Below are positions 7,172-63,683 of a DNA stretch of 64,000 nucleotides, piece after piece. Below the pieces are notes generated by a model. It was not told the DNA's origin. It was given only the letters and a program-made list of their open reading frames with translations, and made no database searches. Source of the stretch: Lachnospiraceae bacterium (lineage in GTDB: Bacteria > Bacillota > Clostridia > Lachnospirales > Lachnospiraceae); the NCBI GenBank assembly GCA_017624235.1, contig JAGANL010000002.1, forward strand, positions 144,765 to 208,764. Reading direction: 5' to 3'. A program made the translations under genes and the position numbers. Within the stretch, counting starts at the first letter, position 1. The number at the start of each line of letters is the position of its first letter.

Positions 7172-10051
7172 ATGAGAAGGTTTGGTTGGTATAAATGGGC
7201 GGCGCTTATTCTTTTGGGGACAGTGATGCTGTTTAGCAGTCGCAGGGTATTGGCAGCCGGAGATCAGGGCGCAGATGAAACGGTCATTCGGGTAGGTTAT
7301 ACGGAAAACGGGCAGATGATACAGGAAAAGGATGGTACGTTTTCCGGCTATGGGGTAGAATATCTGCAGCTTCTTTCGGCCTATACCGGATGGAAATATG
7401 AATATGTGCCCGTATCGGAGAAAAATCGAAAGGAAGAACTCCGAAAAGGGAATATAGACCTCCTTTGCAATATTGCAAAGGAAGGAAAGGGCAATGAGGG
7501 GCTTTTATTGAGTAAAAAAGCTTCCGGCATGTATTATGCCGTATTGTGTGCCAAAAAGGACAATGATTCGGTATGCTTTGATGAATATGATGCCATGAAT
7601 GGAAAGCATATCGTGGTCAATACCAATCTGGATATGGAGCCTATGCTGGAGTCTTTCGCAAAAAGATACCATATTGAGTATACACCGGTCTACTGCGGTG
7701 ATTTTGCAGAGATGGAACATGCGATGGAAACAGGGGAAGCAGAGCTTATGGTCGCGTCGAATCTTCGCAATTTGTCTGATTATAAGTATGTTGCCAAGAT
7801 GGGAATGCAGGACCAGTATTTTGCTGTTGCAGATCAAAATGCAGAACTGATGAGACAGCTGGATGAGGCAGATGAACAGTTAAAGCTGGAGATGCCGTTT
7901 ATCCAGGGAGTCCTGTATGAAAAGTATTATGGCCGTCCGTCCCAGACGATTCTGGGGATGACCAGAGAAGAGCAGAAATTTATTCAGAATGGACGTACGA
8001 TACGGGTAGCCTGTGACAGGGACAGTTATCCCATCGAATATGTGGATGAAAACGGAAATTACAGCGGTGTATATGCAGATGCCATGAAGCTGATTTCTGA
8101 GAAAACCGGATTGCAGTTTGCGTTTACGCCGTTGCAGGATTATAAACAGGCATGGAGCATGCTCTCAAATGGTGAAGTAGATATGACGGCGGGGATGTAT
8201 ATTAGCAGTCAGGCGGCCGAAGAGTATCATATCAGTTATTCCCAGTCTTATATGAATGCCGAGTATACGCTGGTAGCAAGATCCGATGTACAGTTTCCAG
8301 AGCAGCCGGTCATTGTAGTTCCGGAAGGATATGTGGGAATACGCCATTACATCGGTGAGAATTATTCGCAGTGGACGGTCCTGCTGAAAAGAAATATTAC
8401 GGAATGTCTGACGGCGGTGGAGAATAAGGAAGCGGATGGAACAATCATCAATACCATTTTTCTGCAGACAGCATATAATTTAAACGATTTTGATAATCTG
8501 GTCATCCTGCCAATGCGGGATATGGCGATTCCAATCAGGTGCGGTATTGGCGGAAAGGATGCAAAAATCTTAAAATCCATTGTGGATAAGGCAATCATGC
8601 AAATCCCGGCGGAGGAGTTTGAGCGCTGCAGGGTAGAGAATGCAATTAATATCGCCTATGAACCGACCATGCGGGAGATGCTGCAAAGACTGCTGCCGTA
8701 TGCCATCGGAATGGTGGTTCTGGTAGTGGTTATCTTTATGGTTTCCCTGAAAGCAAGGGAGAAACATTTCAAGCATCTTGCAATGACGGATGCCGTGACC
8801 GGATTGTGGAACGGTGTAAAATTCCGTAAAGAAGCGGAGGATTTACTGGAACATAATAAGCAGCGGGAATACCAGATGATTTCCCTGGATTTGGAGCATT
8901 TCAAGTATGTCAATAATGATTTCGGCGAAAAGGCGGCAGATGGAATCCTTCAGTTGATCGGAAAACGCATTCATATGCAGTTTGACAGTGATGCAATTTA
9001 TGCAAGAGATATGGCGGATATGTTCCTGATTCTGACGGAAAAGAAGGAGGATCTGGAGGAACGGCTGACTACGCTTTCGGATGAGATCGTTTTTGAAAAT
9101 AACGGACGGGAACAACGCTATAAACCGGTGATTAAATGTGGAATCTGTCCTGTTTTAGTGGAAAGGAATCAGAGTGTATCGCTGGGTGAGTACATAGACA
9201 GGGCAATTATGGCGAGAAAATCCATCAAAGGCAATGTAGCAGTTATGACGGCATGCTATAATCAGGAAATGTCTGATGAGATTATACATGAACGCAAGAT
9301 TGAGAAACGGATGGAGACAGCCATAAAGCAACGGGAATTTGTGGTCTATTTCCAGCCGAAAGTCCAGCTTAAAACAGAAACACTGATTGGGGCAGAGGCG
9401 CTGGTGCGTTGGATGGATCCGGAGGAGGGACTTGTTCCGCCAGGCTGCTTTATTCCTATTTTTGAACGAAACGGTTTTATTATCCGTCTGGATTTTTATG
9501 TGTATGAAGAGGTATTAAAATGTATGTCCAGATGGCTGCAGGAGGGCCGGCCGCCTATTGTCATATCCATGAATGTTTCCAGGGCACATATCAGCACCCC
9601 GGATTTTGTGAAGAAGCTGGTTACACTGGCAGATCAGTACGAAGTACCGCATCAGCTGATTGAGCTTGAGCTTACCGAAACGGTTCTTGGGGGAAAGAAG
9701 CAGGCTATTTTTGATTTTATAGCAGCCTGCAAGGCAGAAAAGTTCAATATTTCTATTGATGATTTTGGAAGCGGTTATTCTTCCCTGAATCTATTGAAGG
9801 AGCTTCCTGTGGATGTCCTGAAGATTGATCGGGAGTTCTTAAATGAAACGGAAGAGTCCGAAAGAAGCAGCATTATTGTGGAGCAGGTCGTTGAAATGGC
9901 AGCGAAGATACATATTCAGACGCTGTGTGAGGGTGTGGAGACAAAGAAGCAGGCCGAGTTCTTAAGACAGATCGGATGTGATATGGCACAGGGATATCTG
10001 TATTCCAGACCGGTGCCAGTAGGAGAATTTGAAAAGATGCTGGGAGCATAA
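7172..10051 (+). CDS. Membrane c-di-GMP phosphodiesterase: two SBP_bac_3 domains, degenerate GGDEF, EAL
   Basis: A 959-residue sensor. A signal peptide or anchor (residues 9-28) leads to two extracytoplasmic solute-binding-like domains (about 40-260 and 270-500), then a membrane helix (508-527). A GGDEF domain follows whose signature loop reads MADMF at 614-618 instead of GGDEF, so cyclase activity is unlikely. The C-terminal EAL domain is intact: EAL at 742-744 plus the conserved MNVS, ELTET, IDDFGSGYSS, LKID, CEGVE and AQGY segments. It is therefore predicted to hydrolyse c-di-GMP in response to a ligand outside the membrane. It stands alone between degV and parE. Confidence 0.9.
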   Translation: MRRFGWYKWAALILLGTVMLFSSRRVLAAGDQGADETVIRVGYTENGQMIQEKDGTFSGYGVEYLQLLSAYTGWKYEYVPVSEKNRKEELRKGNIDLLCNIAKEGKGNEGLLLSKKASGMYYAVLCAKKDNDSVCFDEYDAMNGKHIVVNTNLDMEPMLESFAKRYHIEYTPVYCGDFAEMEHAMETGEAELMVASNLRNLSDYKYVAKMGMQDQYFAVADQNAELMRQLDEADEQLKLEMPFIQGVLYEKYYGRPSQTILGMTREEQKFIQNGRTIRVACDRDSYPIEYVDENGNYSGVYADAMKLISEKTGLQFAFTPLQDYKQAWSMLSNGEVDMTAGMYISSQAAEEYHISYSQSYMNAEYTLVARSDVQFPEQPVIVVPEGYVGIRHYIGENYSQWTVLLKRNITECLTAVENKEADGTIINTIFLQTAYNLNDFDNLVILPMRDMAIPIRCGIGGKDAKILKSIVDKAIMQIPAEEFERCRVENAINIAYEPTMREMLQRLLPYAIGMVVLVVVIFMVSLKAREKHFKHLAMTDAVTGLWNGVKFRKEAEDLLEHNKQREYQMISLDLEHFKYVNNDFGEKAADGILQLIGKRIHMQFDSDAIYARDMADMFLILTEKKEDLEERLTTLSDEIVFENNGREQRYKPVIKCGICPVLVERNQSVSLGEYIDRAIMARKSIKGNVAVMTACYNQEMSDEIIHERKIEKRMETAIKQREFVVYFQPKVQLKTETLIGAEALVRWMDPEEGLVPPGCFIPIFERNGFIIRLDFYVYEEVLKCMSRWLQEGRPPIVISMNVSRAHISTPDFVKKLVTLADQYEVPHQLIELELTETVLGGKKQAIFDFIAACKAEKFNISIDDFGSGYSSLNLLKELPVDVLKIDREFLNETEESERSSIIVEQVVEMAAKIHIQTLCEGVETKKQAEFLRQIGCDMAQGYLYSRPVPVGEFEKMLGA

Positions 10052-51780: not shown

Positions 51781-52407
51781 CTATTTATTCTTTGCTTCAA
51801 AATCTTCTACATATTGGATAATCAGCTTAACTGTACCGTCTACACCAAGAATGCTGCTGTTGATACACAGATCATAGCTGTCTGCGCGTCCCCACTTTTT
51901 CGAGGAATAATAATTATAATAGCTCTGACGCTGTTTATCCTTTTTGATGATCATATCCTTTGCCTTGGATTCTGTCAAATCATATTTCTGCATGATTCGC
52001 TTTACCTTGGCCTCTTCGTTGCCGTAGATAAACAGATGAACACTGTTCTTGAAATCACTCAGCGCGTAATCCGCACAGCGTCCGACAATGACGCAGGGTC
52101 CTTCATTTGCAATCTTCTTAATGGTATCGAACTGTGCCAGAAAGACCTTATGGCTAATCGGCATATCCATAAAGGAAGAGGCATTATAACCGAAGGAATA
52201 GGTATCCATCACCAGATTATAGAGGAAAGAATTCGTCGGGCGTTCATCATGATTCTGAATCATTTCTTCACAAAAGCCGCTTTCCTTGGCTGCTCTGGTC
52301 AGAAGCTCTTTGTCATAGCATTTAATTCCAAAATGTTCTGCCACCTTTTCTCCGATTTCGCGGCCTGCAGAACCAAACTGACGCCCAATCGTAATCACAG
52401 TATTCAT
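51781..52407 (-). CDS. Cytidylate kinase-like family protein
   Basis: A 208-residue P-loop protein of the cytidylate_kin_2 family (PF13189). The start MNTVITIGRQFGSAGREIGEKVAEHF carries a modified P-loop (GRQFGSAGREIG); the VGRCADYAL segment and basic lid-like KKDKQRQSYYNYY follow. Many Clostridia have several such proteins; the substrate is not established and it is not the essential Cmk. The ATG at 52407 follows GAAGG; a GTG at 52416 is less likely. Confidence 0.85.
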   Translation of the reverse strand: MNTVITIGRQFGSAGREIGEKVAEHFGIKCYDKELLTRAAKESGFCEEMIQNHDERPTNSFLYNLVMDTYSFGYNASSFMDMPISHKVFLAQFDTIKKIANEGPCVIVGRCADYALSDFKNSVHLFIYGNEEAKVKRIMQKYDLTESKAKDMIIKKDKQRQSYYNYYSSKKWGRADSYDLCINSSILGVDGTVKLIIQYVEDFEAKNK

Positions 52408-52481
52408 ACAAAACACCTTCTCTTTCTAAGACAATCTGTTAAATTATCAGTCGATTATCTATTATTTCTTGATTTAATCAT

Positions 52482-52513: not shown

Positions 52514-52963
52514 TTACAGATTTATTTCGGGATATTTACGAAGATTTTCTTCAGACAATCTTTCATACCAGTCATCCCAAATGCTGTCTTCATCAAACAG
52601 AGCATTGATGATATAAGAACGGGTCGGTGTTTCACTCAGCTCCAGCATCAGGACGATCCATCCATCCTGAATAATTTCATCCTGAATGAGACGGAAAAAG
52701 TATTTTGCCGCGTTTTCTACGGTCGGAACTATTTTATCAAAGGGTTCACATTCATTAAGAAGCTTATCCTGATAGCGTTCCATGATCTGATCGATCTTCT
52801 TTTCAATATTTACAAAAAGTGTCATTTCCGTATTGTCAGAAAGCATGCTCAGTAGGATTTCCCAGGTGTGAGGGTGAACATCGCCCTGCTTCCCGCCCAA
52901 CATAATATAGTGGTTCATATTCAGATAGAACTTAAACTTATACTGCTTATAGGTTTTGGCCAT
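52514..52963 (-). CDS. Degenerate 6-pyruvoyl-tetrahydropterin-synthase-like protein (exosortase-G associated)
   Basis: A 149-residue protein with the PTPS/QueD fold signature. The three zinc His are present (H18 in NMNHYI, H30 and H32 in VHPHTWE), as are the PTVEN turn (80-84) and Glu111 in SETPTRSY. The catalytic Cys expected four residues before H30 is Gln26, and the Asp-His pair of the LDH motif is absent. It probably binds a ligand or metal rather than making a pterin. It overlaps the glycosyltransferase gene by 17 bases, last in the cluster. Confidence 0.8.
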   Translation of the reverse strand: MAKTYKQYKFKFYLNMNHYIMLGGKQGDVHPHTWEILLSMLSDNTEMTLFVNIEKKIDQIMERYQDKLLNECEPFDKIVPTVENAAKYFFRLIQDEIIQDGWIVLMLELSETPTRSYIINALFDEDSIWDDWYERLSEENLRKYPEINL

Positions 52964-54338
52964 CGTTGTTCTTCTCCTTTTGCTCCAGAATTTTTAACAG
53001 GTTTCTACGCAGCTCCAGAAAAAGAGAGAAATCCTGCTTCATTGTTTCTTCTACCATCCTGCTCTCCTCTGTGAAGGTCAGTGTTTTCCAACTGCTTTTG
53101 CGGTGAATGGAGTTGATGATTCCGGCAAAACGCACGAAGAAGGAAAAAAGGTTAAAAATCGGCATGATGGTAACGTATAAGATTTTTCTGGCATAATATC
53201 TTCGCAGAGAGGAAAACTCTCTTAAGAAGGAAATGATATTCAGGTAATACAGAAAAGAACTGAATACATATAGCAGGTAAATTAATAATACGGCGACGAT
53301 GATGTTATGAAAGGAATAATTCATACAGCCAAGGGCAATCAGCACGAAATACCAGATCATACGTGGAAAGGCAAAGGTATGGTCTGTCATCAGAAGACGT
53401 ATGACAAAATTGTTAAAATACCCCCGCAACGGATGCTTCAGGTTATCCTTTAAAAACATATGCGATACTTCCAGTTCGCCAATCTGCCAACGCTGTCTCT
53501 GCGTATAAAATTTATTCAGACTTTCAATCGGGTCAACCATAAAGATGGCATTGCTGCAAAGATGCACTTTCTTTTTTAATATGGAACGTATCTGAAAGGT
53601 CAGATGAGTGTCCTCACAAATGGTATTCGTATTATATAAGAAGGTCTTTAACAATACCGATTTTCGGAAGGCGGAAAAGGCTCCTGAAAGCGTGTAGATG
53701 CTGTTGGACTGAGACTCAAAGTTTCGTCCGGCCAAAAAAGCCTGCGCATACTCCATAAATTCCAGTTTTCGGAACTGCTTCAGGAAAAATCCCTTTGTCT
53801 GCTCGATTAAAGCCGGTTCGATCAGAATCGTTCCGGTCATACAATCGACATTGGAATCCGTTTCAAATTGTTTTACGATATTCATCAGTGCCTGTTCCTG
53901 AAGAACACCATCACTATCGATATTGATGATATATTTTCCGGTACTGTTAAAAATAGCCTTATTCAGTGCCTTGGACTTCCCCTGCTTGGAATGCATCCAC
54001 CACATGGCCAGTGTCGGAAAATCAATCTGAGCCTTCTGAAAGATATCGAAGCTGTTATCTTTCGACCCATTATCAATCAACATGATTTCAATCAGTTCAT
54101 CCGGATAGGACGAAAGATGGATGGATTCCAGACAACGATACAGGGTTTGGCTCGAATTATAGACCGGAATGATCAGTGTAATATTCGGCAGAAATTCCAG
54201 AGGGATATCCTTAGGCTGCTCCACACGCTTAAAAAGCAGAAGGAAGAAATTTCCCACAGCAGGAACGACTTCAATGAGAAGCGGAATGATAATCCACGCC
54301 GCCCAGAAAAACAATTTATTTGCCAGCTTCGCTATCAT
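52947..54338 (-). CDS. Processive GT2 glycosyltransferase, exosortase-G associated
   Basis: A 463-residue membrane glycosyltransferase. One N-terminal helix (about 8-35) leads to a cytosolic GT2 domain with NITLIIPVYN, DSD at 141-143, ED at 242-243 and QRQRW at 280-284. These are the D, DxD, ED, QxxRW set of processive enzymes such as cellulose and hyaluronan synthases. About four C-terminal helices follow. It matches the glycosyltransferase that accompanies XrtG. The ATG at 54338 has AGGAG eight bases upstream and overlaps xrtG by 23 bases. The sugar is unknown. Confidence 0.87.
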   Translation of the reverse strand: MIAKLANKLFFWAAWIIIPLLIEVVPAVGNFFLLLFKRVEQPKDIPLEFLPNITLIIPVYNSSQTLYRCLESIHLSSYPDELIEIMLIDNGSKDNSFDIFQKAQIDFPTLAMWWMHSKQGKSKALNKAIFNSTGKYIINIDSDGVLQEQALMNIVKQFETDSNVDCMTGTILIEPALIEQTKGFFLKQFRKLEFMEYAQAFLAGRNFESQSNSIYTLSGAFSAFRKSVLLKTFLYNTNTICEDTHLTFQIRSILKKKVHLCSNAIFMVDPIESLNKFYTQRQRWQIGELEVSHMFLKDNLKHPLRGYFNNFVIRLLMTDHTFAFPRMIWYFVLIALGCMNYSFHNIIVAVLLIYLLYVFSSFLYYLNIISFLREFSSLRRYYARKILYVTIMPIFNLFSFFVRFAGIINSIHRKSSWKTLTFTEESRMVEETMKQDFSLFLELRRNLLKILEQKEKNNDGQNL

Positions 54339-54933
54339 AACCAAACTCTCCTACCCGCTGTCTGCGAATCTGTGCTCTGGTAAACACATAAAAATAAAGA
54401 ATAATGGATAAGGCATAAAAAATCAGTCTTCCGACAATCGTATGTGCTACATAATAGGATTCATTGCCAAAATGATTGATAATCAGGCATATACTGAAGA
54501 GACGGATAATATTTGCTGCAATAATCCAAACCGTTCCCATGAGGGAAATCACAAGCTTTTCACGTACATTGTAAACAGCAAAGAAGAATACCAGAGAAAT
54601 AAAAACGAGAATTTCAATGACACCGCCGCATTCAAAATCCACATAAAGAGAAATCGGCCCATCCGCATTTTCGATAAAAAGAATCGAATGCGCCGTATAA
54701 GCCTTGAAAATACCGAGTGCGTTTCCCAAAAGTCCCGTCAAATAACACGTCAGGGTCGTCAATAGATTTGTCAAAACCTTACGTAAAATCAGAAAAGAGA
54801 AGAAAAAGGTTCCGACACTTCCAAGCAGAAAGAAATAAAAATCCAGTTTTTTTCTTTTGAATACCGTCAAAAGATATACCCATGCCACAAAAATAAGTAC
54901 TAATAAAAGAAAAAAGAAAAAAGTATTGCTCAT
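54316..54933 (-). CDS. xrtG: Exosortase family protein XrtG
   Basis: A 205-residue protein with about seven membrane helices. The exosortase catalytic triad is visible: Cys102 in DFECGGVIEI, Arg144 in NIIRLFS and His164 in YVAHTIVG. Exosortases are membrane transpeptidases that process C-terminal sorting tails, by analogy with archaeosortase. XrtG is the Gram-positive type that occurs with a GT2 enzyme and PTPS-like proteins, all present here. The ATG overlaps the previous stop (TAAATG). A candidate substrate with a matching tail lies one gene upstream in the operon. Confidence 0.85.
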   Translation of the reverse strand: MSNTFFFFLLLVLIFVAWVYLLTVFKRKKLDFYFFLLGSVGTFFFSFLILRKVLTNLLTTLTCYLTGLLGNALGIFKAYTAHSILFIENADGPISLYVDFECGGVIEILVFISLVFFFAVYNVREKLVISLMGTVWIIAANIIRLFSICLIINHFGNESYYVAHTIVGRLIFYALSIILYFYVFTRAQIRRQRVGEFGYDSEAGK

Positions 54934-55410
54934 TTACAGCTCTCCTATCGTTTTGCTGGAAGCGGTCTGATATCTGTGCTTTACCCGATCACAGTAGGCT
55001 TCTATTTCATCAGGCAGGGTCAGGTTAAAGACATCTCCCAAAAGCAGACGTTCACCAACGCAGTAAACAGATACCGGACTGTCACCGATTTCCAGAGAAA
55101 TCAAATGCATTCCGTTTCGTTCAAATATTGGTTTCAAATCCTGATAAAAAAAATCACCCATATTTTCCAGAGTCGGTATCACATCCTTAAACATTGGAAG
55201 TTCGTTGAGGCGAATGCCCTGAAGTCTGGAAAAATAACCGTTTAACAGCTTTTCATTACTTAAAAAAACAGGATGGTCATCCTGTTTTTCTGTAACATAC
55301 ATGCCCACACGAAAGGTATGGGCATGCATTTTTCTTGGATCCTCAACTACCATGTTATGCATTGCATTAAAGGTTACCTGATACAGATATGCTTCATGTT
55401 TTTCCGTCAT
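54934..55410 (-). CDS. Second degenerate PTPS-like protein (exosortase-G associated)
   Basis: A 158-residue paralogue of the protein at 52514-52963. Equivalent residues are H18 (NAMHNM), H29 and H31 (MHAHTF) and PTLEN (79-83). The catalytic Cys position is Pro25, and the catalytic Glu is replaced by Asp110 (IGDSPVSVY). It again keeps the zinc triad and loses the chemistry of 6-pyruvoyl-tetrahydropterin synthase. The ATG at 55410 overlaps the upstream stop by four bases. Confidence 0.78.
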   Translation of the reverse strand: MTEKHEAYLYQVTFNAMHNMVVEDPRKMHAHTFRVGMYVTEKQDDHPVFLSNEKLLNGYFSRLQGIRLNELPMFKDVIPTLENMGDFFYQDLKPIFERNGMHLISLEIGDSPVSVYCVGERLLLGDVFNLTLPDEIEAYCDRVKHRYQTASSKTIGEL

Positions 55411-56867
55411 GCAAGTGCTTCTCCATTCTTTTTCCTTTTCAGCCATACGTAGCTGGCCGGTACCAGAAGGAATACTGCAGCGGAAAAGGGAACGGCTCCT
55501 GTCGGCGAGCCTGCCGCTGAAATCCGGTTATACATCAGATTCGGTGTAAAGAACTGAATCATACTGTAGTTATCCAGATCGATGTTTCCGTTCTGCTTTT
55601 GAAATTCCGATAATGGTATTTTCAACTCCAACTGATTATTGACGTTTCCTTCGTTTACACGATAATAAGCGGATGCACCGTCTGTCAGAACATAAGACCA
55701 GGAGCTGTCACGATGGAGAACATCTACCTGATAGGTTCCGGGAGCTGCTATGGTGCTGGCAAGCTGCTGTCCGTCCGGCCATTCGATTTGATAGGCAGCC
55801 ATCTGTCCGTCGACAAAGAATTGGAAATCGTTGCCGTTTGCATAGGCTTCATAATCCCGCGCAAAAGTAATATTCAGATACACATTCTCTCCGTCCGAAT
55901 ACATCTGCATACCGTGGCGCACATTGGTATCATAGCTTCCGACAGGGGTTGTATATTTCACATTATCCACCCATACACCATAGTTCCAGCAATTCTGCGA
56001 ATTATCCCAGTTGTATTCATAGGAAACAGGAATATCCTCCCAACCGCTGAAGCTTCCGTCCACGGCAGGAGCGCTGCTGCTTGAATTTCGGCCGTCTTCC
56101 GCCTCAAGTCCAAGAACTTCTGCCTCACTGCCCTGACTGATGATCAGCACCAGATTTCCGTTTTCATCCACGTAGCTTTCCATAATCGTATTGGCGCCGT
56201 AGTCCTCGGAAAGGGAATATTGCTTGATTACATTAGTCTCTCCGTCATAGGAATCTGCAATGGTTGTATAATCTACTCCCACCAAAGAAGACGGAGTAAC
56301 AGATTCGCCATCTTTATTCGTAAACGGTGTTTCCGGTGACAGTGCTGCTTCGGTTTCCGTTTCACTTTCTGTTGCTGCTTCGGTTCCTATTTCGGTTTCT
56401 GTTGCTGCTTCAGTTTCTGCTTCGGTTTCTGCTTCAGCATTTGTATCAGTATCCGTTCCCTCGAGCTCCGTTTTTGATTCGGTCTGCTCTGTCTCAGTTT
56501 TATCAACTTCGGTTTCTGTACCAGATGCTTCTGTTTTTTCCTCTGAGGATGCTTCTTCAGAGGTTTCCGTTTGTGAATCTTTCTTCTGCGAAGCTTCTGA
56601 CGTACTTTGTTTGTCCGATGGATCAGTGGTGTTGTCCTTAGCCTCAGCGGAGGAAGCTTCTTTGTTCTTTTTGCCGCTTCCCTTGGTTTCACTTTCACTG
56701 CCAGATTCCGAAGCAGAGGCTTTACCTTCACTTTCTGTCTTATGCGAATCTGTGCCTTCGGTCGTATTTGACGCCTCGACTGCATATACCGGGCTCATAT
56801 GAGAGCCTACAAGAGCCGCTGATAAAATAACGGCCAATACCAGTTTACTGAATTTCCCTTTCTTCAT
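55407..56867 (-). CDS. Secreted Glu/Thr/Ser-rich protein with Firmicu-CTERM-like sorting tail
   Basis: A 486-residue exported protein and the likely substrate of XrtG. Signal peptide 1-29 is followed by an acidic, Ser/Thr/Glu-rich disordered stretch (31-180) of the kind often glycosylated. A folded part (about 185-445) starts a beta-sandwich-like domain near residue 270 with DGSFSGWEDIP, resembling CBM9/DOMON domains. The last 37 residues form a sorting tail: SAAGSPTGAVPFSAAVFLLV membrane helix then KRKK. It resembles Firmicu-CTERM tails. Directly upstream of the PTPS-like and xrtG genes. Confidence 0.82.
   Translation of the reverse strand: MKKGKFSKLVLAVILSAALVGSHMSPVYAVEASNTTEGTDSHKTESEGKASASESGSESETKGSGKKNKEASSAEAKDNTTDPSDKQSTSEASQKKDSQTETSEEASSEEKTEASGTETEVDKTETEQTESKTELEGTDTDTNAEAETEAETEAATETEIGTEAATESETETEAALSPETPFTNKDGESVTPSSLVGVDYTTIADSYDGETNVIKQYSLSEDYGANTIMESYVDENGNLVLIISQGSEAEVLGLEAEDGRNSSSSAPAVDGSFSGWEDIPVSYEYNWDNSQNCWNYGVWVDNVKYTTPVGSYDTNVRHGMQMYSDGENVYLNITFARDYEAYANGNDFQFFVDGQMAAYQIEWPDGQQLASTIAAPGTYQVDVLHRDSSWSYVLTDGASAYYRVNEGNVNNQLELKIPLSEFQKQNGNIDLDNYSMIQFFTPNLMYNRISAAGSPTGAVPFSAAVFLLVPASYVWLKRKKNGEALA
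56330..56800 (-). repeat. Degenerate tandem repeat encoding the acidic Thr/Glu-rich stretch
   Basis: Short units of 6 to 12 bases such as GAAACCGAAGCA on the coding strand recur, especially between 56340 and 56450, and encode runs of TEAETEA type. Such tracts change length easily by slippage, so this region may vary between strains. Confidence 0.7.
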
Positions 56868-56895
56868 ATCCTTTCTTCTCCCTTATTTATACCCA

Positions 56896-59280
56896 CTATG
56901 TTAAATAATCTTCCAGTACTACATAAGCTGCAATCCACAGGAAACCGATGCCAATCAAGCCCAGAATACTGCAGACAAGTCCGGCTGCCTGATTTGGATA
57001 GACCATCCGAAAACAGGTGGAGCCCTCGTTGATCACCCAGAGATCATCCTCGGTAGAGATAATCCTGTCCGGTACCAGAGTATCCACGGCTGCAAGACCG
57101 GAATTGATTTTATCCGCCTCTGTTTGCAGAACGAATGCATTCGTATCCTTTTCTACTATTATCGACAACATTTCCCGTTTTGGCAAGTCCTCATGCGAAA
57201 TGTTTAAGGTTTCATCCAGAAAACGAAGCAGATCCGAATTGTGTGTTTCCAGATAATAATAAACCAGATTTAAGCCTATAAATGTAATATTATCTTCTTC
57301 ATTCTGTCCCAGATAGGTCAGATGGCTCTTATCCGAATAACGGGCCTCCTTTAATACTCTGCTGCAGCCGGAAATATATACCGTATTCCAGAGCGACTGA
57401 TTCCTGTCCCGGAAATCCAGCTTGAATTGATTGCCATTTTCGTTTTCCAGAATCGGGAACTGATCCGTAAATTGTATAAATTGTGCATATACTCCCAGAA
57501 ACTCATTTTTTCCGGTCAGCGCATTGATTGGAATATGCTGCATGTCGATAAAAATATTCACTCCCTTTTGGGAAAGCTCCTGCAGCATATTTTCCGCCTT
57601 TCCCTTGTCACGATAGGTAAAGCCGGACAAATAGAGATTCTGATATTGTATAAGCTCATCCACCGTATAGTCTTCCAGACAGCTGCTTTGTCCGAGTCCA
57701 AAGGACGGATAGATATAAGAAATATAAAAAGCGTTATCTCCGATTGCCAGATTGTCATATTGGGAAATGACACCATAGCGTTCCTGTACCCGGACTGCTT
57801 TGTATACCACAGCCATCTCGTTTTCGGCTGCAATCTCATAGCCCAGACGGTTGGCCGCCTGCGAAAGAAGCTCCAAAGCTCCTTCCTCCGTGAGAAGCTC
57901 CTTTGGAATCACGACCACATCATTTCCATATAGGAACAGTCTGTCAAACATATAATCGTAAAAACCGTCGGCGAATGCCTCATTCAGCTGACTCAAATGC
58001 TGTCTGATTTCTGCATTTTCATAATCCCAGCCATAGGTTTCATCCACTCCCCGGCTGGCAAAATACCAGTGTGGGAAAGCACCCAGCAAAGAGCTGTCCA
58101 TCAACGCTATGCGGCTGTCGGTCAGGGACGCGGCCTGATCCAGCAGGTAATCCTGTATCAGTGCTTCCTGGCGTTCCAATACCCTGTTTCCACTTTCTAG
58201 AGAGGTGAGCTGATAAACACCGGTACAGATCGGGATGCAAAGCAGAATCAACAGAAAAATATTTTTCAGCTTATTCCAGCAAAGCAATGTTAACAGACAG
58301 AATATTCCGGCACCGGCAATAAAGAAACCGGAATCCCGTAATGCCGGAAAAGGAATCAGTCTGCGTACCGGCTCCAGCGCCGGAAGGGATAAAAGAGCCA
58401 GCACAGCCGCCAGAAAAAATCCGGCCGCACGATCTCGGTTTGCCGTCAGAAGACCAAGCAGGGACACAGCCAGAAGGACAATGGCTTCCAGTGTTCCGTT
58501 TGTGCTGTATACACTGCTCTTATGGGTTAACAGCCCTCCACTGATCGCGGGATACAGGAAATATCCCATAGCCAGATAGAGAAACAGCATATCGGCAGCA
58601 AGCATTGTTTCAAACCGCCAGACTTTTTGTGTCAGCATGGCGAAAATGAGATAAAAAAATATGACAGCACCAAAGGCAATTGCCAGCATATAATTGGATA
58701 AGATTAAAAGGCAGAGCAAAAGCGAAAATGGGCACAAGGCCAGTCGGTGCTTCCAACGGATAAATTCAAACAAATAGTACAAAAGCAAGGGTAACAGCAA
58801 AATTCCCATCAGAATATCAAGACTTCCCAGAAACAAAGCCGTTTGAAGCGTATGAGGCAGAAACAAAAAGGCCAGTCCGGTGAAAAAGGCTGCTGTCATC
58901 TTCTGATGCCGTACACCGAACAGCATAAAGCCCATCTGAGACAAAAATACCATCAGTCCGTAAAACAGGCATATGCCCCCATGCAGGTCACCTGCGCAAA
59001 GCAGGGAAAGCAGATGGATTAAAAGATAGCTGACCGGAGAGGTAAAACGGAATATTTCGTAGCCGTTATACCAGTTTTCTGCAAGCAAAGGATATAATTG
59101 CCCTTCCTGCCATGCTTTTGCTATTTCATCCAGTCTGTAAAGCTGTGTAAAAAAATCACTCGCCTGCCAGAAAGCTCCGGTTCGGAAAAGAAGGAGCCCA
59201 ATACAGACAGCAACACCTGCCGAAGCTGCCCATGCAATGATAAAGTTTTTTCGTCTATGTGACGAACAGACTGTATTCAT
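56896..59280 (-). CDS. Many-pass membrane protein, PTPS_related type
   Basis: A 794-residue protein with about eleven N-terminal helices (residues 15-365), a large extracellular C-terminal domain (about 370-755) and a last helix near the end (LVCSILGLIGIGFLWIAA). The N-terminal FTSPVSYLLIHLLSLL region and the overall plan fit the PF10131 PTPS_related membrane proteins, glycosyltransferase-C-like, which occur with exosortases and other sorting systems. The ATG at 59280 is preferred over TTG at 59283. Likely role: transfer of a sugar or lipid-linked unit outside the membrane; this is inference. Confidence 0.75.
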   Translation of the reverse strand: MNTVCSSHRRKNFIIAWAASAGVAVCIGLLLFRTGAFWQASDFFTQLYRLDEIAKAWQEGQLYPLLAENWYNGYEIFRFTSPVSYLLIHLLSLLCAGDLHGGICLFYGLMVFLSQMGFMLFGVRHQKMTAAFFTGLAFLFLPHTLQTALFLGSLDILMGILLLPLLLYYLFEFIRWKHRLALCPFSLLLCLLILSNYMLAIAFGAVIFFYLIFAMLTQKVWRFETMLAADMLFLYLAMGYFLYPAISGGLLTHKSSVYSTNGTLEAIVLLAVSLLGLLTANRDRAAGFFLAAVLALLSLPALEPVRRLIPFPALRDSGFFIAGAGIFCLLTLLCWNKLKNIFLLILLCIPICTGVYQLTSLESGNRVLERQEALIQDYLLDQAASLTDSRIALMDSSLLGAFPHWYFASRGVDETYGWDYENAEIRQHLSQLNEAFADGFYDYMFDRLFLYGNDVVVIPKELLTEEGALELLSQAANRLGYEIAAENEMAVVYKAVRVQERYGVISQYDNLAIGDNAFYISYIYPSFGLGQSSCLEDYTVDELIQYQNLYLSGFTYRDKGKAENMLQELSQKGVNIFIDMQHIPINALTGKNEFLGVYAQFIQFTDQFPILENENGNQFKLDFRDRNQSLWNTVYISGCSRVLKEARYSDKSHLTYLGQNEEDNITFIGLNLVYYYLETHNSDLLRFLDETLNISHEDLPKREMLSIIVEKDTNAFVLQTEADKINSGLAAVDTLVPDRIISTEDDLWVINEGSTCFRMVYPNQAAGLVCSILGLIGIGFLWIAAYVVLEDYLT

Positions 59281-59330
59281 CAATTCCTGTCTCCCCTCCT
59301 GATGATTACGTCAAATATTGCTATATTGTA

Positions 59331-61646
59331 TCATTCTTCGGAGCTTTTTTCAACAGATGGGACCTCCAGTCCATAAAACCCTTCCTGAAGCATATAGTAG
59401 CTTTTGCGGAGACGTTCAAAATAAGGATAGTAATCCCAATTCTCCCAGTCGTATTCCTGAAACGTCACATTTTTATTCTTTTCATCTGCAATGCCAAGCC
59501 AGATACCATCCACCTTTGTGCCTGCAATCGAATGCTTTGTCCAGAAATCATCGATAATCTCTTTGCTCGATGGGTCGCGGAAATTGAGCATCAGCCATGG
59601 AATACGTATTTCCAGTATATCTCCCTCATAGTAAAAATCTGCCAGAGAATTATAGACAGTTGAAGTATAATCATTGGTGCCGAAGGTAAGCTGCCCTGCC
59701 TCAAATTTTTGCAAGGGTATCGTTTCGGGACGATCCTGCAGCACCAATTCTCTTTCCAGCAGATAGTAGATGGAATGGAACATATGGTTATTCGGCTTAC
59801 GGATTTCCGGTGTTGTTTTGATGCTGTCATCGTATTTGTCATAGTCAAACTGATACAGATCATAATAGCTGTGCACCAGAAGACGGGAGTCCTTCTTTCC
59901 GTGCAGGGAAAGCACAAAATCGGCAGGACGTTCCAAGCTTGTCCTCTCATAACGTGTACTGCCCGATTTCGGTGTAATATCAAAGGGAATCAGGAGCTTT
60001 TCTTTATTAAAATCTGCTCCCTCCTTCCGTATCATCAGATACAGATAGGCACAGTCATGTTTCACATACAAAGACAGAGCATCCTGTTGTATCAGAAGAT
60101 CCTGTTCGCTCCATTCTTCATCGGATCCGTCTAACAGCACAGTCTCCTGCTCTTCACCCGGTACAAAATCCAACAGGCCAAAATGCTGCTCGTTGGTCAT
60201 TACATCATACCAATAGGCTCTTCGTTCCTCGTCGGTATACTCAGCGGTATTCCAGGTTCTTTTAAACCATTCATCCTGCCATGCAAAAACCAGCCCGCCG
60301 GCATAGCCTGTATCGTGGATATCCTTTGTCATGGACAGAAGCATTTCCCCCTGCTCCTGCTCATTATGATTTCCCTGATCAAAGCCGGTGTAAGGATTGG
60401 CATGAGTGACGCCGCGGGAGGCAGGAACTCCGTATTCTGCAACGAGTACCGGCATGTTATGCCGGGAAATCAAATCCTCCAGATAGGCCCGGTAGGTATT
60501 GATCCTGCCTGTTTCATCACGGTAGACAGAATATTCCTTTTCGGTATACATAAAGTTCGGATAGTATGGATAGATATGATAGGAGGCAAACAGACCGCTT
60601 GGAAATGCGTCTGTAGCTTTCAAATCCTCCATATACAGATCCACACTGTATTCCTCTGCCATCGTTTCACTCGGATGTTCCATCACATCCGCTGTCGGCC
60701 AGTTGGAAAAGCTGACCGGACGCTGTAACTGATAATGCTCCATTTCGTAAGAAACAATGAAATCACCGGTCTGTGCCCAAAAGACTTCAAATGGCTCCAC
60801 AGATTCCGTACCAATATAAGTTCCCTGGTAGGACTTCAGATCGGGATGAAGCTTGTTGGTAGTAGATACAAAATCAGCATCGGATTCAATACCCAGAATC
60901 CAGCCGATGACATACGGAGAAATATCCCATGAATATTCGCCCCAGGCTTTTCCGGGCTTCTCTTCAATCGTACATTGTCCGTGGATGATATCCACCAGAT
61001 CGCGCATATCCTGATATAACAGTTCCTGCAGCTCCTGATCAAAGGCATCTGCCGTCTCAGCAACTCTGGTTTCATCGTACCAGGTACCCTGGAACAGATA
61101 CAGTGGCTTTTGAGCCTTTTGATTATACTCATAAAAGGCCTGATAAAAGGCGGGCGGTTGAATCGTGTAAACCCGGATGCAGTTTGCGTTCATAGCAGCA
61201 ATCTGCTCAAACCAGCGCGCATATTCCTCATAGGTAATAGCTGTCTCTCCCGGAAAATATCCGGGTTTTCCAAGACCGATGTTGACACCCTTGATATACA
61301 GGTCATCAAAAGTGCTGCCGTTGTATACACTTAAATAGCTCCCATTGGTTTGAAAATAGAATCGGGCATCGCCAAGAGTATATGGCTGGAGGGATTGTGG
61401 GGATTCGGCCGCATACTCTGTCTCTGGTTCTTCCTTGAGCTCTGAAGCGGAATCTCCTGCCGAATCCGCTGTGACAGTGTTATCTGATATGATCTGCTCA
61501 CTGCCAAGCATCCTCAGCTCATCCACCTTCCTGCTGTAAGTACTTTCACAGCCGGATAACAGGCAGACTGCAGATAAGAGAAGGACAAGTAAAAGCTTCT
61601 GTATTATTTTTCTTCTGATCTGTTTGATGTTTTTATTCTTTTTCAT
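59331..61646 (-). CDS. Lipoprotein with glycosidase-like barrel and CBM9/DOMON-like domain
   Basis: A 771-residue lipoprotein with lipobox LLSGC (Cys33) after a basic signal peptide. Residues about 90-480 resemble a clan GH-A glycosidase barrel: YIKGVNIG start, candidate acid/base E254 in GWILGIESD, candidate nucleophile E404 in VLVAEYGVP, and FAWQDEW. Residues about 500-760 begin with a DGSDEEW segment like the second domain of the neighbouring sorted protein. A poor ribosome-binding site precedes the ATG. It may trim or extend a cell-surface glycan; transglycosidase activity is also possible. Confidence 0.78.
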   Translation of the reverse strand: MKKNKNIKQIRRKIIQKLLLVLLLSAVCLLSGCESTYSRKVDELRMLGSEQIISDNTVTADSAGDSASELKEEPETEYAAESPQSLQPYTLGDARFYFQTNGSYLSVYNGSTFDDLYIKGVNIGLGKPGYFPGETAITYEEYARWFEQIAAMNANCIRVYTIQPPAFYQAFYEYNQKAQKPLYLFQGTWYDETRVAETADAFDQELQELLYQDMRDLVDIIHGQCTIEEKPGKAWGEYSWDISPYVIGWILGIESDADFVSTTNKLHPDLKSYQGTYIGTESVEPFEVFWAQTGDFIVSYEMEHYQLQRPVSFSNWPTADVMEHPSETMAEEYSVDLYMEDLKATDAFPSGLFASYHIYPYYPNFMYTEKEYSVYRDETGRINTYRAYLEDLISRHNMPVLVAEYGVPASRGVTHANPYTGFDQGNHNEQEQGEMLLSMTKDIHDTGYAGGLVFAWQDEWFKRTWNTAEYTDEERRAYWYDVMTNEQHFGLLDFVPGEEQETVLLDGSDEEWSEQDLLIQQDALSLYVKHDCAYLYLMIRKEGADFNKEKLLIPFDITPKSGSTRYERTSLERPADFVLSLHGKKDSRLLVHSYYDLYQFDYDKYDDSIKTTPEIRKPNNHMFHSIYYLLERELVLQDRPETIPLQKFEAGQLTFGTNDYTSTVYNSLADFYYEGDILEIRIPWLMLNFRDPSSKEIIDDFWTKHSIAGTKVDGIWLGIADEKNKNVTFQEYDWENWDYYPYFERLRKSYYMLQEGFYGLEVPSVEKSSEE

Positions 61647-61676
61647 AATGGCATCATTTTATCACGAATGGACAGG

Positions 61677-63683
61677 CTATGCAATTCCATCTCCAATAGA
61701 AATATCCAGACAAAATCTGGATGCAATTGCCTTGAGATAAGCTTCATGATGACTTGCCGCTGCCAGCATGGGTGCATAAGCATCCCTGCCGCTTACACGG
61801 AGCATATAGTCCATATCGCCAAAATGTGCCGTATACTCATCTATAAAATCCAATATTCCCTTCTGTATCTCACAAATTCCTTCTGTATTGGCATCGCACT
61901 CGCCAAAGGCAAGCCCATCGGGAGCTTCCGGTGAAAATCCGAGAAAGGACGGTGTCGGTGAGGAAAGCAGCAATTCCCAGAATACGTTGTAATCCTTACC
62001 CGGATCATGCTTCTTGAGCAGATCACGGTTATGTGCCTGAGAATACAGATAGGCATTTAATATGCCGGACTGCAGGAAAATTTCGGAGGCATCTGGTTCG
62101 GCATTGTGTATCGTATTTGTTCCGGACAGAAGCCCTGTAATCTCACATGGCAGCTTCCATACCTGACGGATCAGATAACGCAGGGCAACGGCTCCGCTTC
62201 CGGCCCATCCGATATCCACGGCACAGGCTTTTTCTACTCCTTGAAGCTGTTCCGAATAATACTTTTTTGCAATTTCGGATTCCCTCCGATACACCGGAAT
62301 CACCTCATCCCAATGAAGCAGCAGAAAATCCCTGAGTGTTTCCACGTTTTGATCGGTCAGATATTCTTCCGGACTCGGATAATCCAGAAAGGAAAGCTCC
62401 ATGGCATTCAGAACTTGTGAAATGGTCTTCCTCTGATTGATTTTGTGATATAAAAAGCGTCGAAAATAATCATACCGGTCATGCTCTGCCATAAGCTTAA
62501 CTGCGGCCATTCTGGACCAGTAGACATATGCCGTATTCTGATTGGGATAGAGTCTGTCATATGCCTGCTTTAGGATATCACCATCTCTGGAAAGGAAGAG
62601 AATTTTATCAATATCATGCTGTGAGCAGTAATCGTGAATATAGGTACAGTATCCGAGTACGAACAGACCGCCATAGATAAAGCCATATTCATATTCCAGG
62701 GAACATGTTTTTATACCACTGTATATATAATTATTAACAATTCCCCGGTATGCTCCACCGATTACGGGAGACATATCATAGGGACGGTAGGACAATGACA
62801 TTTTATGTACACTGGGATAAGGAAGCGTTTGAAATCCGTGCCGTTTTGCCATGAAAAGATCACTGTGTTCATTGTCTCCTACATGAACCTTGGAGAGAGC
62901 CGTTCCGATTCTCTCATTTACAAGCTCAAACAATGTTCCTGCCGCTTTGCTCTTGGAGCATTCGCAGGAAACATAAAGCTTTTCAAAGCCGCTATAGCCG
63001 TTTTGCAGAAGAAGCTCTTCTAAAAATTCCTGTGGAAGATACATATCGGATAGTATGATAATCCTCTTCTTCTGCCGCTTCAGCCTTTGAAATACCTCTG
63101 CCATAAATGAATTGGCATAACAAAACCTGATTTCGAGCAGCTGTTCGAGCTGTAAACCTTTTTCAGCACTGATTCCGGTTTTCCATTCCAGATGCTTCCA
63201 GATTTCTGAAAGGGTTACTTCATAATGACCGTTTTTCTGATAACATTTTTGCCGTATCTCCCTTTCTGCCTCTTGTCGTATCCGTTTGAAATCTAAGATA
63301 CCAAGCTCCTTCCCGACAAAATAAAATAAATCGGCTGGTTCTGAGAATGGCCGGAAAATCAGGGTGTCAAAAATATCAAAGGATATGACATCAAACGGCA
63401 TGAGCCGGTTTACATATTCCTCTATACTTGGATGCTTTTTAGCTGCCAGAACGGATTCTGTTTCTGTAACAGGCAGCCTTGCACTCTTCTCTTCATAAAA
63501 TGGCACCGATAACGGCTCATCCAGAAAGTGGCAGAAAAGGATATAGTAACAGAAATTCAGAAACAACAGATAACACCAGGAAAAGATTCTTTGTAATCCA
63601 TGGGAATTCTGGTGGATTTTGTGATAACGATCCCGGATCCCGGAATGGCGGTTGACGAGGAGGTGATAAAGTTTCAGACGCAT
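61677..63683 (-). CDS. Large HAD-domain protein, COG5610-like
   Basis: A 668-residue protein. Residues about 33-52 are hydrophobic. The HAD domain spans about 95-290, with motif I DIFDT (D103, D106), motif II LSDMY (S212), Lys in SKSKAAG (244-246) and motif IV VGDNEHSD (D270, D275). A second region (about 310-660) has a repeated HAD-like strand (ILFLSRDGDILKQAY) and VDIGWAGSGAVAL. Such proteins (COG5610) sit in polysaccharide and surface-glycan gene clusters, probably as phosphatases or transferases. Upstream-most of the cluster after the regulator. Confidence 0.78.
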   Translation of the reverse strand: MRLKLYHLLVNRHSGIRDRYHKIHQNSHGLQRIFSWCYLLFLNFCYYILFCHFLDEPLSVPFYEEKSARLPVTETESVLAAKKHPSIEEYVNRLMPFDVISFDIFDTLIFRPFSEPADLFYFVGKELGILDFKRIRQEAEREIRQKCYQKNGHYEVTLSEIWKHLEWKTGISAEKGLQLEQLLEIRFCYANSFMAEVFQRLKRQKKRIIILSDMYLPQEFLEELLLQNGYSGFEKLYVSCECSKSKAAGTLFELVNERIGTALSKVHVGDNEHSDLFMAKRHGFQTLPYPSVHKMSLSYRPYDMSPVIGGAYRGIVNNYIYSGIKTCSLEYEYGFIYGGLFVLGYCTYIHDYCSQHDIDKILFLSRDGDILKQAYDRLYPNQNTAYVYWSRMAAVKLMAEHDRYDYFRRFLYHKINQRKTISQVLNAMELSFLDYPSPEEYLTDQNVETLRDFLLLHWDEVIPVYRRESEIAKKYYSEQLQGVEKACAVDIGWAGSGAVALRYLIRQVWKLPCEITGLLSGTNTIHNAEPDASEIFLQSGILNAYLYSQAHNRDLLKKHDPGKDYNVFWELLLSSPTPSFLGFSPEAPDGLAFGECDANTEGICEIQKGILDFIDEYTAHFGDMDYMLRVSGRDAYAPMLAAASHHEAYLKAIASRFCLDISIGDGIA

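What the first reader, a model, noticed from the sequence alone, without database searches (positions are those of the whole stretch)
52514..63683. An eight-gene exosortase G cluster in a probable gut Clostridia genome
Seen: eight minus-strand genes with gaps of at most about 50 bases and several overlaps. They encode a HAD protein, a glycosidase-like lipoprotein, a PTPS_related membrane protein, a secreted protein with a C-terminal sorting tail, two PTPS-like proteins, an exosortase with an intact C/R/H triad, and a processive GT2. Known: XrtG, its GT2 and PTPS-like proteins are a described genomic association. To my knowledge no biochemical function has been shown. The extra HAD and glycosidase-like genes make this locus look like a complete surface-glycoprotein or glycan assembly line.
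Basis: partly seen in the sequence, partly recalled or inferred. Interest (0 to 1): 0.75.

Follow-up and report, generated by a model that had tools for sequence, protein, structure and literature searches.

The report
Exosortase G cell-surface sugar machine
A gut bacterium carries a known but never explained gene set, exosortase G and its partners, and comparison with related genomes suggests that it builds a sugar polymer and fixes one sugar-binding protein next to the machine that makes it.

Summary
In detail: eight tightly packed minus-strand genes, with XrtG (TIGR03110), its GT2 (TIGR03111), two TIGR03112 PTPS-like proteins, PF10131 and a Firmicu-CTERM protein (TIGR04145), all above curated cut-offs. 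These five families form a conserved core, already named in databases and in print. The HAD gene is not linked to the system (1 of 81 loci; 1 of 8 XrtG genomes). The glycosidase-like gene is an accessory, elsewhere beside other GT2 genes. What is new is comparative. PF10131 has a GT-C glycosyltransferase fold. The sorted ectodomain looks CBM9-like (moderate support). The PTPS-like domains keep the metal histidines and ligand Glu but have lost the catalytic residues. In one lineage (10 loci, 9 genomes) XrtG is fused to its presumed substrate and has lost the catalytic Cys; 11 of 11 loci in that set not so fused keep it. I read the system as a synthase-dependent polysaccharide machine whose carbohydrate-binding subunit is installed at the membrane by XrtG. 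Polymer, attachment chemistry and phenotype are inferred. The window's locus is an unusual branch: no sensor gene, a glycosidase in the operon, and a GT-C residue lost in most of its near relatives.

The parts
61677..63683 (-). HAD-superfamily protein (668 aa); co-directional neighbour, probably not part of the XrtG system
   Evidence: TIGR01549 over cut-off; found in 1 of 81 XrtG loci, 1 of 8 XrtG-positive and 31 of 142 XrtG-negative family genomes
59331..61646 (-). Glycosidase-like lipoprotein (771 aa; lipobox Cys33); accessory
   Evidence: Cys33, Glu254 and Glu404 invariant in 8 of 8 sequences, window included; weak profile match to a GH2 catalytic domain in the PDB, E 0.0011; beside other GT2 genes in XrtG-negative genomes
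56896..59283 (-). PF10131 membrane protein (795 aa), GT-C fold
55407..56867 (-). Firmicu-CTERM protein (486 aa): signal peptide, S/T/E-rich linker, CBM9-like ectodomain, sorting tail
   Evidence: TIGR04145 55.6 bits against 50; only copy found in the assembly, about 80% complete
55407..55517 (-). C-terminal sorting tail: G-S-P-T-G motif, hydrophobic helix, basic end
   Evidence: Read by eye against the tails of relatives
54934..55446 (-). PTPS-like protein A (170 aa; likely start 55410)
   Evidence: TIGR03112 83 bits; metal His and ligand Asp/Glu kept, catalytic residues lost
54316..54933 (-). XrtG exosortase (205 aa), catalytic Cys102, Arg144, His164
   Evidence: TIGR03110 198 bits; triad 76 of 76, window included
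52947..54344 (-). Membrane GT2 with the motif set of a processive synthase (D96, D143-S-D145, E244-D245, QRQRW 282-286)
   Evidence: TIGR03111 618 bits; next best PgaC/IcaA 120 bits; motifs 76 of 76, window included
52514..52963 (-). PTPS-like protein B (149 aa)
   Evidence: TIGR03112 128 bits; in 70 class-B domains three metal His 70 of 70 each, ligand Glu 69, catalytic Asp replaced by Gln 69

Best explanation
The five-family core (GT2, XrtG, Firmicu-CTERM, PF10131, PTPS-like) is a synthase-dependent exopolysaccharide machine. GT2 polymerises and exports a glycan. PF10131, a GT-C protein, modifies it or hands over a lipid-linked sugar, or in much of the window's clade perhaps only binds it. 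The Firmicu-CTERM ectodomain, CBM9-like and probably glycan-binding, is exported by Sec, held by its C-terminal helix, cut by XrtG at the G-[ST]-x-[ST]-G motif and re-anchored in the membrane next to the synthase, a role comparable to BcsB in cellulose synthase (recalled). The two PTPS-like domains are dead enzymes that keep a metal site and a pterin- or guanine-type pocket; they act as cytosolic ligand sensors or assembly hubs, one on the PF10131 side and one on the GT2/sensor side. The glycosidase lipoprotein, where present, trims the polymer. Shown here: gene association, motifs, folds as predicted, residue loss, fusions. Inferred: polymer synthesis, carbohydrate binding, XrtG cleavage and re-anchoring, ligand sensing.
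Confidence: 0.55

Rival explanations
1. Glycoprotein assembly: GT2 makes a polyprenyl-linked sugar and the GT-C protein PF10131 glycosylates the secreted Firmicu-CTERM protein, which XrtG then anchors as a surface glycoprotein.
For: GT-C hits include protein glycosyltransferases (OST, PMT, DPY19); the window's Firmicu-CTERM protein has an S/T/E-rich stretch of about 150 residues.
Against: 24 Firmicu-CTERM proteins of the relatives are under 300 aa, too short for such a stretch (one may be cut by a contig end); GT2 has the complete processive motif set in 76 of 76; the GT-C Asp is missing in 13 of 15 rows of the window's clade; the glycosidase-like partner goes with other GT2 genes.
Confidence: 0.2
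2. XrtG joins the Firmicu-CTERM protein covalently to the growing polysaccharide itself, making a protein-glycan conjugate that leaves the membrane.
For: GT2 is near XrtG in 51 of 53 well-flanked loci; exosortases were proposed from the start to link sorting with exopolysaccharide (PMC1569441, passages read).
Against: In one lineage the ectodomain is permanently fused to a Cys-less XrtG, with GT2 and PTPS-PF10131 kept where the flanks show them, and in another to PF10131, so a freed, polymer-bound ectodomain is not needed in the first and not obvious in the second.
Confidence: 0.15
3. The PTPS-like proteins are working enzymes that supply a pterin or deazapurine cofactor to the system.
For: Fold family and metal ligands kept.
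Against: The catalytic Cys column is variable, Asp is Gln in 69 of 70 B domains, and the catalytic His is mostly Asp or Asn (B) or Gly (A) (residue roles recalled from QueD/PTPS work); in many loci the domains are fused to membrane proteins.
Confidence: 0.05
4. Chance neighbours: the eight genes are one operon without a common function.
For: The HAD gene is such a neighbour.
Against: Core genes together in 51-53 of 53 well-flanked loci; four kinds of fusion.
Confidence: 0.02

Closest known systems
XrtG / Firmicu-CTERM system of Lactiplantibacillus plantarum (PMC12854382, passages read)
   Same: Exosortase G, a Firmicu-CTERM protein and XrtG-associated glycosyltransferases, reported as one complete system; same family names as here.
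   Different: The passages report transcript levels, no function. They name two glycosyltransferases; '6-pyruvoyl' does not occur in the text, and I saw no mention of PF10131 or a glycosidase.
PEP-CTERM / EpsH exosortase (PMC1569441, passages)
   Same: Membrane protein with conserved Cys, Arg and His, tripartite C-terminal tail, link to exopolysaccharide loci.
   Different: Many substrates per genome and an outer membrane; here one dedicated substrate beside the enzyme.
Archaeosortase ArtA / PGF-CTERM (PMC11980579, passages)
   Same: Same enzyme superfamily; cleavage with lipid re-anchoring, the model I borrow.
   Different: Archaeal S-layer and other substrates; no GT2 synthase partner known to me.
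Listeria Pss and Bacillus cereus Pel systems (PMC4125290, PMC7112168, passages)
   Same: Firmicute GT2-type (Pss) or synthase-dependent (Pel) polysaccharide with a degenerate GGDEF c-di-GMP receptor; a glycosidase gene or domain; CotH/DUF4956/polyphosphate polymerase accessories near some pel loci.
   Different: No exosortase, PTPS-like or PF10131 gene named in the passages read.
QueD / 6-pyruvoyl-tetrahydropterin synthase
   Same: Fold family, three metal His, PTxEN stretch and ligand Glu.
   Different: Catalytic Cys, Asp and His lost; paired paralogues; often fused to membrane proteins.

Membership tests
XrtG exosortase (TIGR03110) | Score over the curated cut-off | tested here: met
   198.1 against 102.75 bits
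XrtG exosortase (TIGR03110) | Cys-Arg-His triad | tested here: met
   Cys102, Arg144, His164; 76 of 76 sequences, window included
XrtG exosortase (TIGR03110) | Cleavage and transfer of the substrate tail | not testable with these tools
   Needs mass spectrometry
Firmicu-CTERM (TIGR04145) | Score over cut-off; motif, helix, basic tail | tested here: met
   55.6 against 50 bits; tail read against relatives
Processive GT2 synthase | D, DxD, (T/E)D and QxxRW motifs plus membrane helices | tested here: met
   Motifs 76 of 76; helices judged from sequence only; motif roles recalled
Processive GT2 synthase | Makes a polysaccharide | not testable with these tools
   Product unknown
PgaC/IcaA PNAG synthase (TIGR03937) | Score over cut-off | tested here: not met
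   119.9 against 422.3 bits
GT-C superfamily (PF10131 protein) | Fold | tested here: met
   Foldseek ranks 1-22, VIA top 32 rows
GT-C superfamily (PF10131 protein) | Acidic residue in the first outer loop | tested here: inconclusive
   Asp43 in the window; D in 25 of 28 rows outside its clade but 2 of 15 inside (43 free-standing PF10131 proteins, the fused ones not aligned)
6-pyruvoyl-tetrahydropterin synthase / QueD enzyme | Catalytic Cys, Asp and His | tested here: not met
   Lost in both PTPS-like classes; QueD model 30.8 and 18.8 against 89.25 bits
6-pyruvoyl-tetrahydropterin synthase / QueD enzyme | Three metal His and ligand Glu | tested here: met
   B: 70, 70, 70 and 69 of 70; A: His 61, 62, 61 of 67, E36+D28 of 67
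CBM9 (ectodomain) | Fold | tested here: inconclusive
Clan GH-A glycosidase (glycosidase-like lipoprotein) | Two catalytic Glu on a TIM barrel | tested here: inconclusive
   Glu254 and Glu404 invariant in 8 of 8; PDB GH2 match E 0.0011; barrel not modelled

The most novel reading that the evidence does not exclude
The paired, catalytically dead PTPS-like domains are a new class of nucleotide receptor: their metal and guanine/pterin-type pocket binds a guanine-based messenger (possibly c-di-GMP, given fusion to sensors that elsewhere carry GGDEF or HD domains) and gates a polysaccharide synthase whose glycan-binding subunit is welded in place by an exosortase. In one lineage the weld has been made permanent by gene fusion and the protease has become a pseudo-enzyme.
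Probability: 0.12. Interest if true: 0.85.

Novelty: new variant of a known kind. Interest (0 to 1): 0.5.

Why it matters
XrtG is a named but functionally unexplained exosortase of Gram-positive bacteria, including gut and food organisms. The comparison gives it a testable job. A lineage in which substrate and enzyme are fused and the catalytic Cys has decayed is independent, if single-event, evidence that Firmicu-CTERM is the substrate and that the reaction serves to keep that ectodomain at the membrane machine. It also proposes functions for two families now called 'PTPS-related' only by association: PF10131 as GT-C, TIGR03112 as a ligand-binding non-enzyme.

Tried and rejected
HAD as a component: rejected. 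Glycosidase-like gene as a core component: rejected, accessory only. The glycosidase's C-terminal domain as a copy of the Firmicu-CTERM ectodomain: a shared 'DGxxxxW' look by eye, but hhalign probability 4%, rejected. A single alignment of substrate plus enzyme rows for a fusion model (A4) misaligned the substrate rows, so the natural fusion was not modelled. PDB sequence searches with PF10131, ectodomain and PTPS-like queries gave nothing significant, nor did the glycosidase's C-terminal part. Promoter and terminator scan: promoter-like sites 24 against a shuffle mean of 25.3, terminator-like 14 against 9.3 (sd 3.2), none decisive for the operon ends. Same-genus genome G547 (88% complete) gave no match to XrtG or HAD; the XrtG call warns that such an answer does not show absence. 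The fusion-against-Cys test on independent pairs has no power (3 pairs). Dropped before counts: one PTPS-like domain that could not be classed; L107/L119, a 23.6-bit match to another kind of exosortase; five loci in which my ORF picker found no XrtG frame and 23 with short flanks. The paper on exosortases of 2012 (doi 10.1128/JB.06026-11) is not held, so what it says on XrtG is unknown to me beyond recall. Paper searches; open-access library only. Of what they listed I opened passages of PMC12854382, PMC8951740, PMC11980579, PMC4125290, PMC1569441 and PMC7112168 and nothing else.
Full report
Observation. In the assembly (2.33 Mb in 51 contigs, about 80% complete) one XrtG and one Firmicu-CTERM protein were found, close together. 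The window ends at a contig end, so what lies upstream of the HAD gene is unknown.

Conservation. A scan of GTDB contigs gave 298 relatives of XrtG, of which the best 80 were kept as loci with up to 10 kb of flank; they lean towards the window's kin. HMMs built from the window proteins found, in these 80 plus the window, Firmicu-CTERM in 79 of 81, PTPS-like in 79, GT2 in 79, XrtG in 76 (my ORF picker missed five), PF10131 in 73, the glycosidase-like gene in 8 and the HAD gene in 1. Many contigs are cut. In the 53 loci with at least 5 kb on both sides of XrtG (52 of the 80, plus the window) the counts are Firmicu-CTERM 53, PTPS-like 52, full-length GT2 51, PF10131 51, glycosidase-like 5; 44 of 53 have exactly two PTPS-like domains. 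In 150 genomes of the window's family, TIGR03112 over cut-off is in exactly the eight genomes that have XrtG; two more genomes match it below the cut-off.

What is and is not part of it. The HAD gene matches in 32 of 150 family genomes, of which one has XrtG, so it is a neighbour. The glycosidase-like family matches in 17 of 150; 12 are strong (E below 1e-80), 3 of them in XrtG-positive and 9 in XrtG-negative genomes. I fetched nine of these twelve places. In seven XrtG-negative genomes it stands in what looks like a cluster of VTC, DUF4956, CotH, glycosidase-like, a further membrane protein and a GT2 (families assigned by HMM in one of them, L124, the others by position, length and my GT2 and glycosidase HMMs). 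In one more (L121) it is beside a large GT2 protein, and in G066 (L128), which is XrtG-positive, it is on another contig with no GT2 near it. CotH, DUF4956 and polyphosphate polymerase genes are reported beside Gram-positive pel loci (PMC7112168, passages read). A component the window lacks was found: a two-helix, sensor-like protein after GT2, in 41 of 80 loci, 29 of the 53 well-flanked ones and none of the 12 well-flanked loci of the window's clade. Of 39 sensors scanned, 7 match GGDEF, 7 carry a fused PTPS domain and 1 an HD domain. The assembly has 12 GGDEF domains elsewhere.

The fusions. PTPS-A is fused to PF10131 in 23 of 67 cases, PTPS-B to the sensor in 7 of 41 sensors. In two loci (L068, L092) a single frame holds Firmicu-CTERM and XrtG, both over cut-off, with the sorting motif and the Cys kept. 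In three distant genomes (L109, L115, L116) an ectodomain with a tail follows PTPS-PF10131 in one frame; this is read by eye, the TIGR04145 match of L109 being weak (E 0.009, below cut-off). Most telling is the set L097-L106 and L130-L140 from a phylum sample and the class of G164. Ten loci have an ectodomain-XrtG fusion of about 400 aa, and all ten lack the Cys (nine Asn, one Ser). His is kept in the nine that reach it, Arg and His both in the six aligned. The other eleven, not fused to an ectodomain, keep the Cys (six, four, L106 read, where its frame runs on into GT2). The fused ectodomain is homologous to Firmicu-CTERM by profile comparison (E 5.8e-6, probability 85%), though single-sequence matches are weak or missing, and by eye these fusions lack the sorting motif.

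Cautions. Two of the ten (L136, L139) come from one genome and are near copies, so there are nine genomes; L098 is on a 3-kb contig of a genome outside the class and may be contamination; L138 is cut by a contig end; for L134, unfused, my His pattern did not match. The tree of 32 XrtG domains (these 20 without L106, and 12 chosen from the other loci) needs one Cys loss and three fusions, the Cys-less fusions forming one side of a branch at 95/93: one evolutionary event retained, not a repeated one. Some of these distant XrtG score near or below the TIGR03110 cut-off.

Mechanism. The simplest reading is that the ectodomain must sit, anchored, beside the GT2. A separate ectodomain needs XrtG to exchange its tail for an anchor; a fused one does not, and the Cys decays while the XrtG body stays as scaffold. 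Together with the motif set of GT2, the GT-C partner, the GGDEF-bearing sensors and the glycosidase's other contexts this gives a synthase-dependent polysaccharide machine, similar in logic to Bcs (recalled), Pss and Pel. The anchoring chemistry is borrowed from archaeosortase (PMC11980579, passages), where the exact lipid is still unclear.

Known and new. The XrtG, GT2, PTPS-like and Firmicu-CTERM families are NCBIfam entries, and the L. plantarum system is described as a set in PMC12854382 (passages read). Searches listed 5, 0, 2, 0 and 5 papers; of these I opened three (passages), and neither they nor the titles and abstract starts of the rest point to a function for XrtG, to PTPS-like domains with GGDEF, or to Cys-less fused exosortases. 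The library is open-access only, and the 2012 exosortase paper was not readable. The window's locus is a variant: no sensor, both PTPS-like genes free-standing, glycosidase in the operon.

Score. Known system, correctly spotted, with over-reading of two flanking genes; the comparative results make an old question testable, hence 0.5.

Noticed in passing
L098, L099, L101, L102, L132, L136-L140: Pseudo-exosortases: XrtG-like domain fused to an ectodomain related to Firmicu-CTERM, with the catalytic Cys replaced by Asn or Ser.
   Followed up: yes
L122-L127, L129; e.g. L124:5122-13566: XrtG-free clusters of VTC, DUF4956, CotH, glycosidase-like, HEAT-repeat membrane protein and a PgaC-like GT2: a probable separate polysaccharide system in the window's family (families by HMM in L124 only).
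   Followed up: partly
window 8780-9232 (G000:C25:153544-153996): One of 12 GGDEF domains of the assembly lies in this window (961-aa frame), so c-di-GMP signalling may be available although the cluster lacks the sensor gene.
   Followed up: no
L074:11849-13666: The sensor after GT2 probably carries an HD-type domain (605 aa frame) in place of GGDEF; judged from its length and the single HD-matching member among the 39 scanned.
   Followed up: no
L032, L034, L035, L038, L039: A second PF10131-type gene stands convergent just after PTPS-B.
   Followed up: no
L118 (G160), frame of L106: One frame runs from a shortened XrtG straight into a shortened GT2 (482 aa): a fusion or an assembly deletion.
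   Followed up: no
window 51781-52416: A cytidylate-kinase-like gene (PF13189, 196 bits) follows the cluster on the same strand, 97 bases downstream; not tested for linkage.
   Followed up: no
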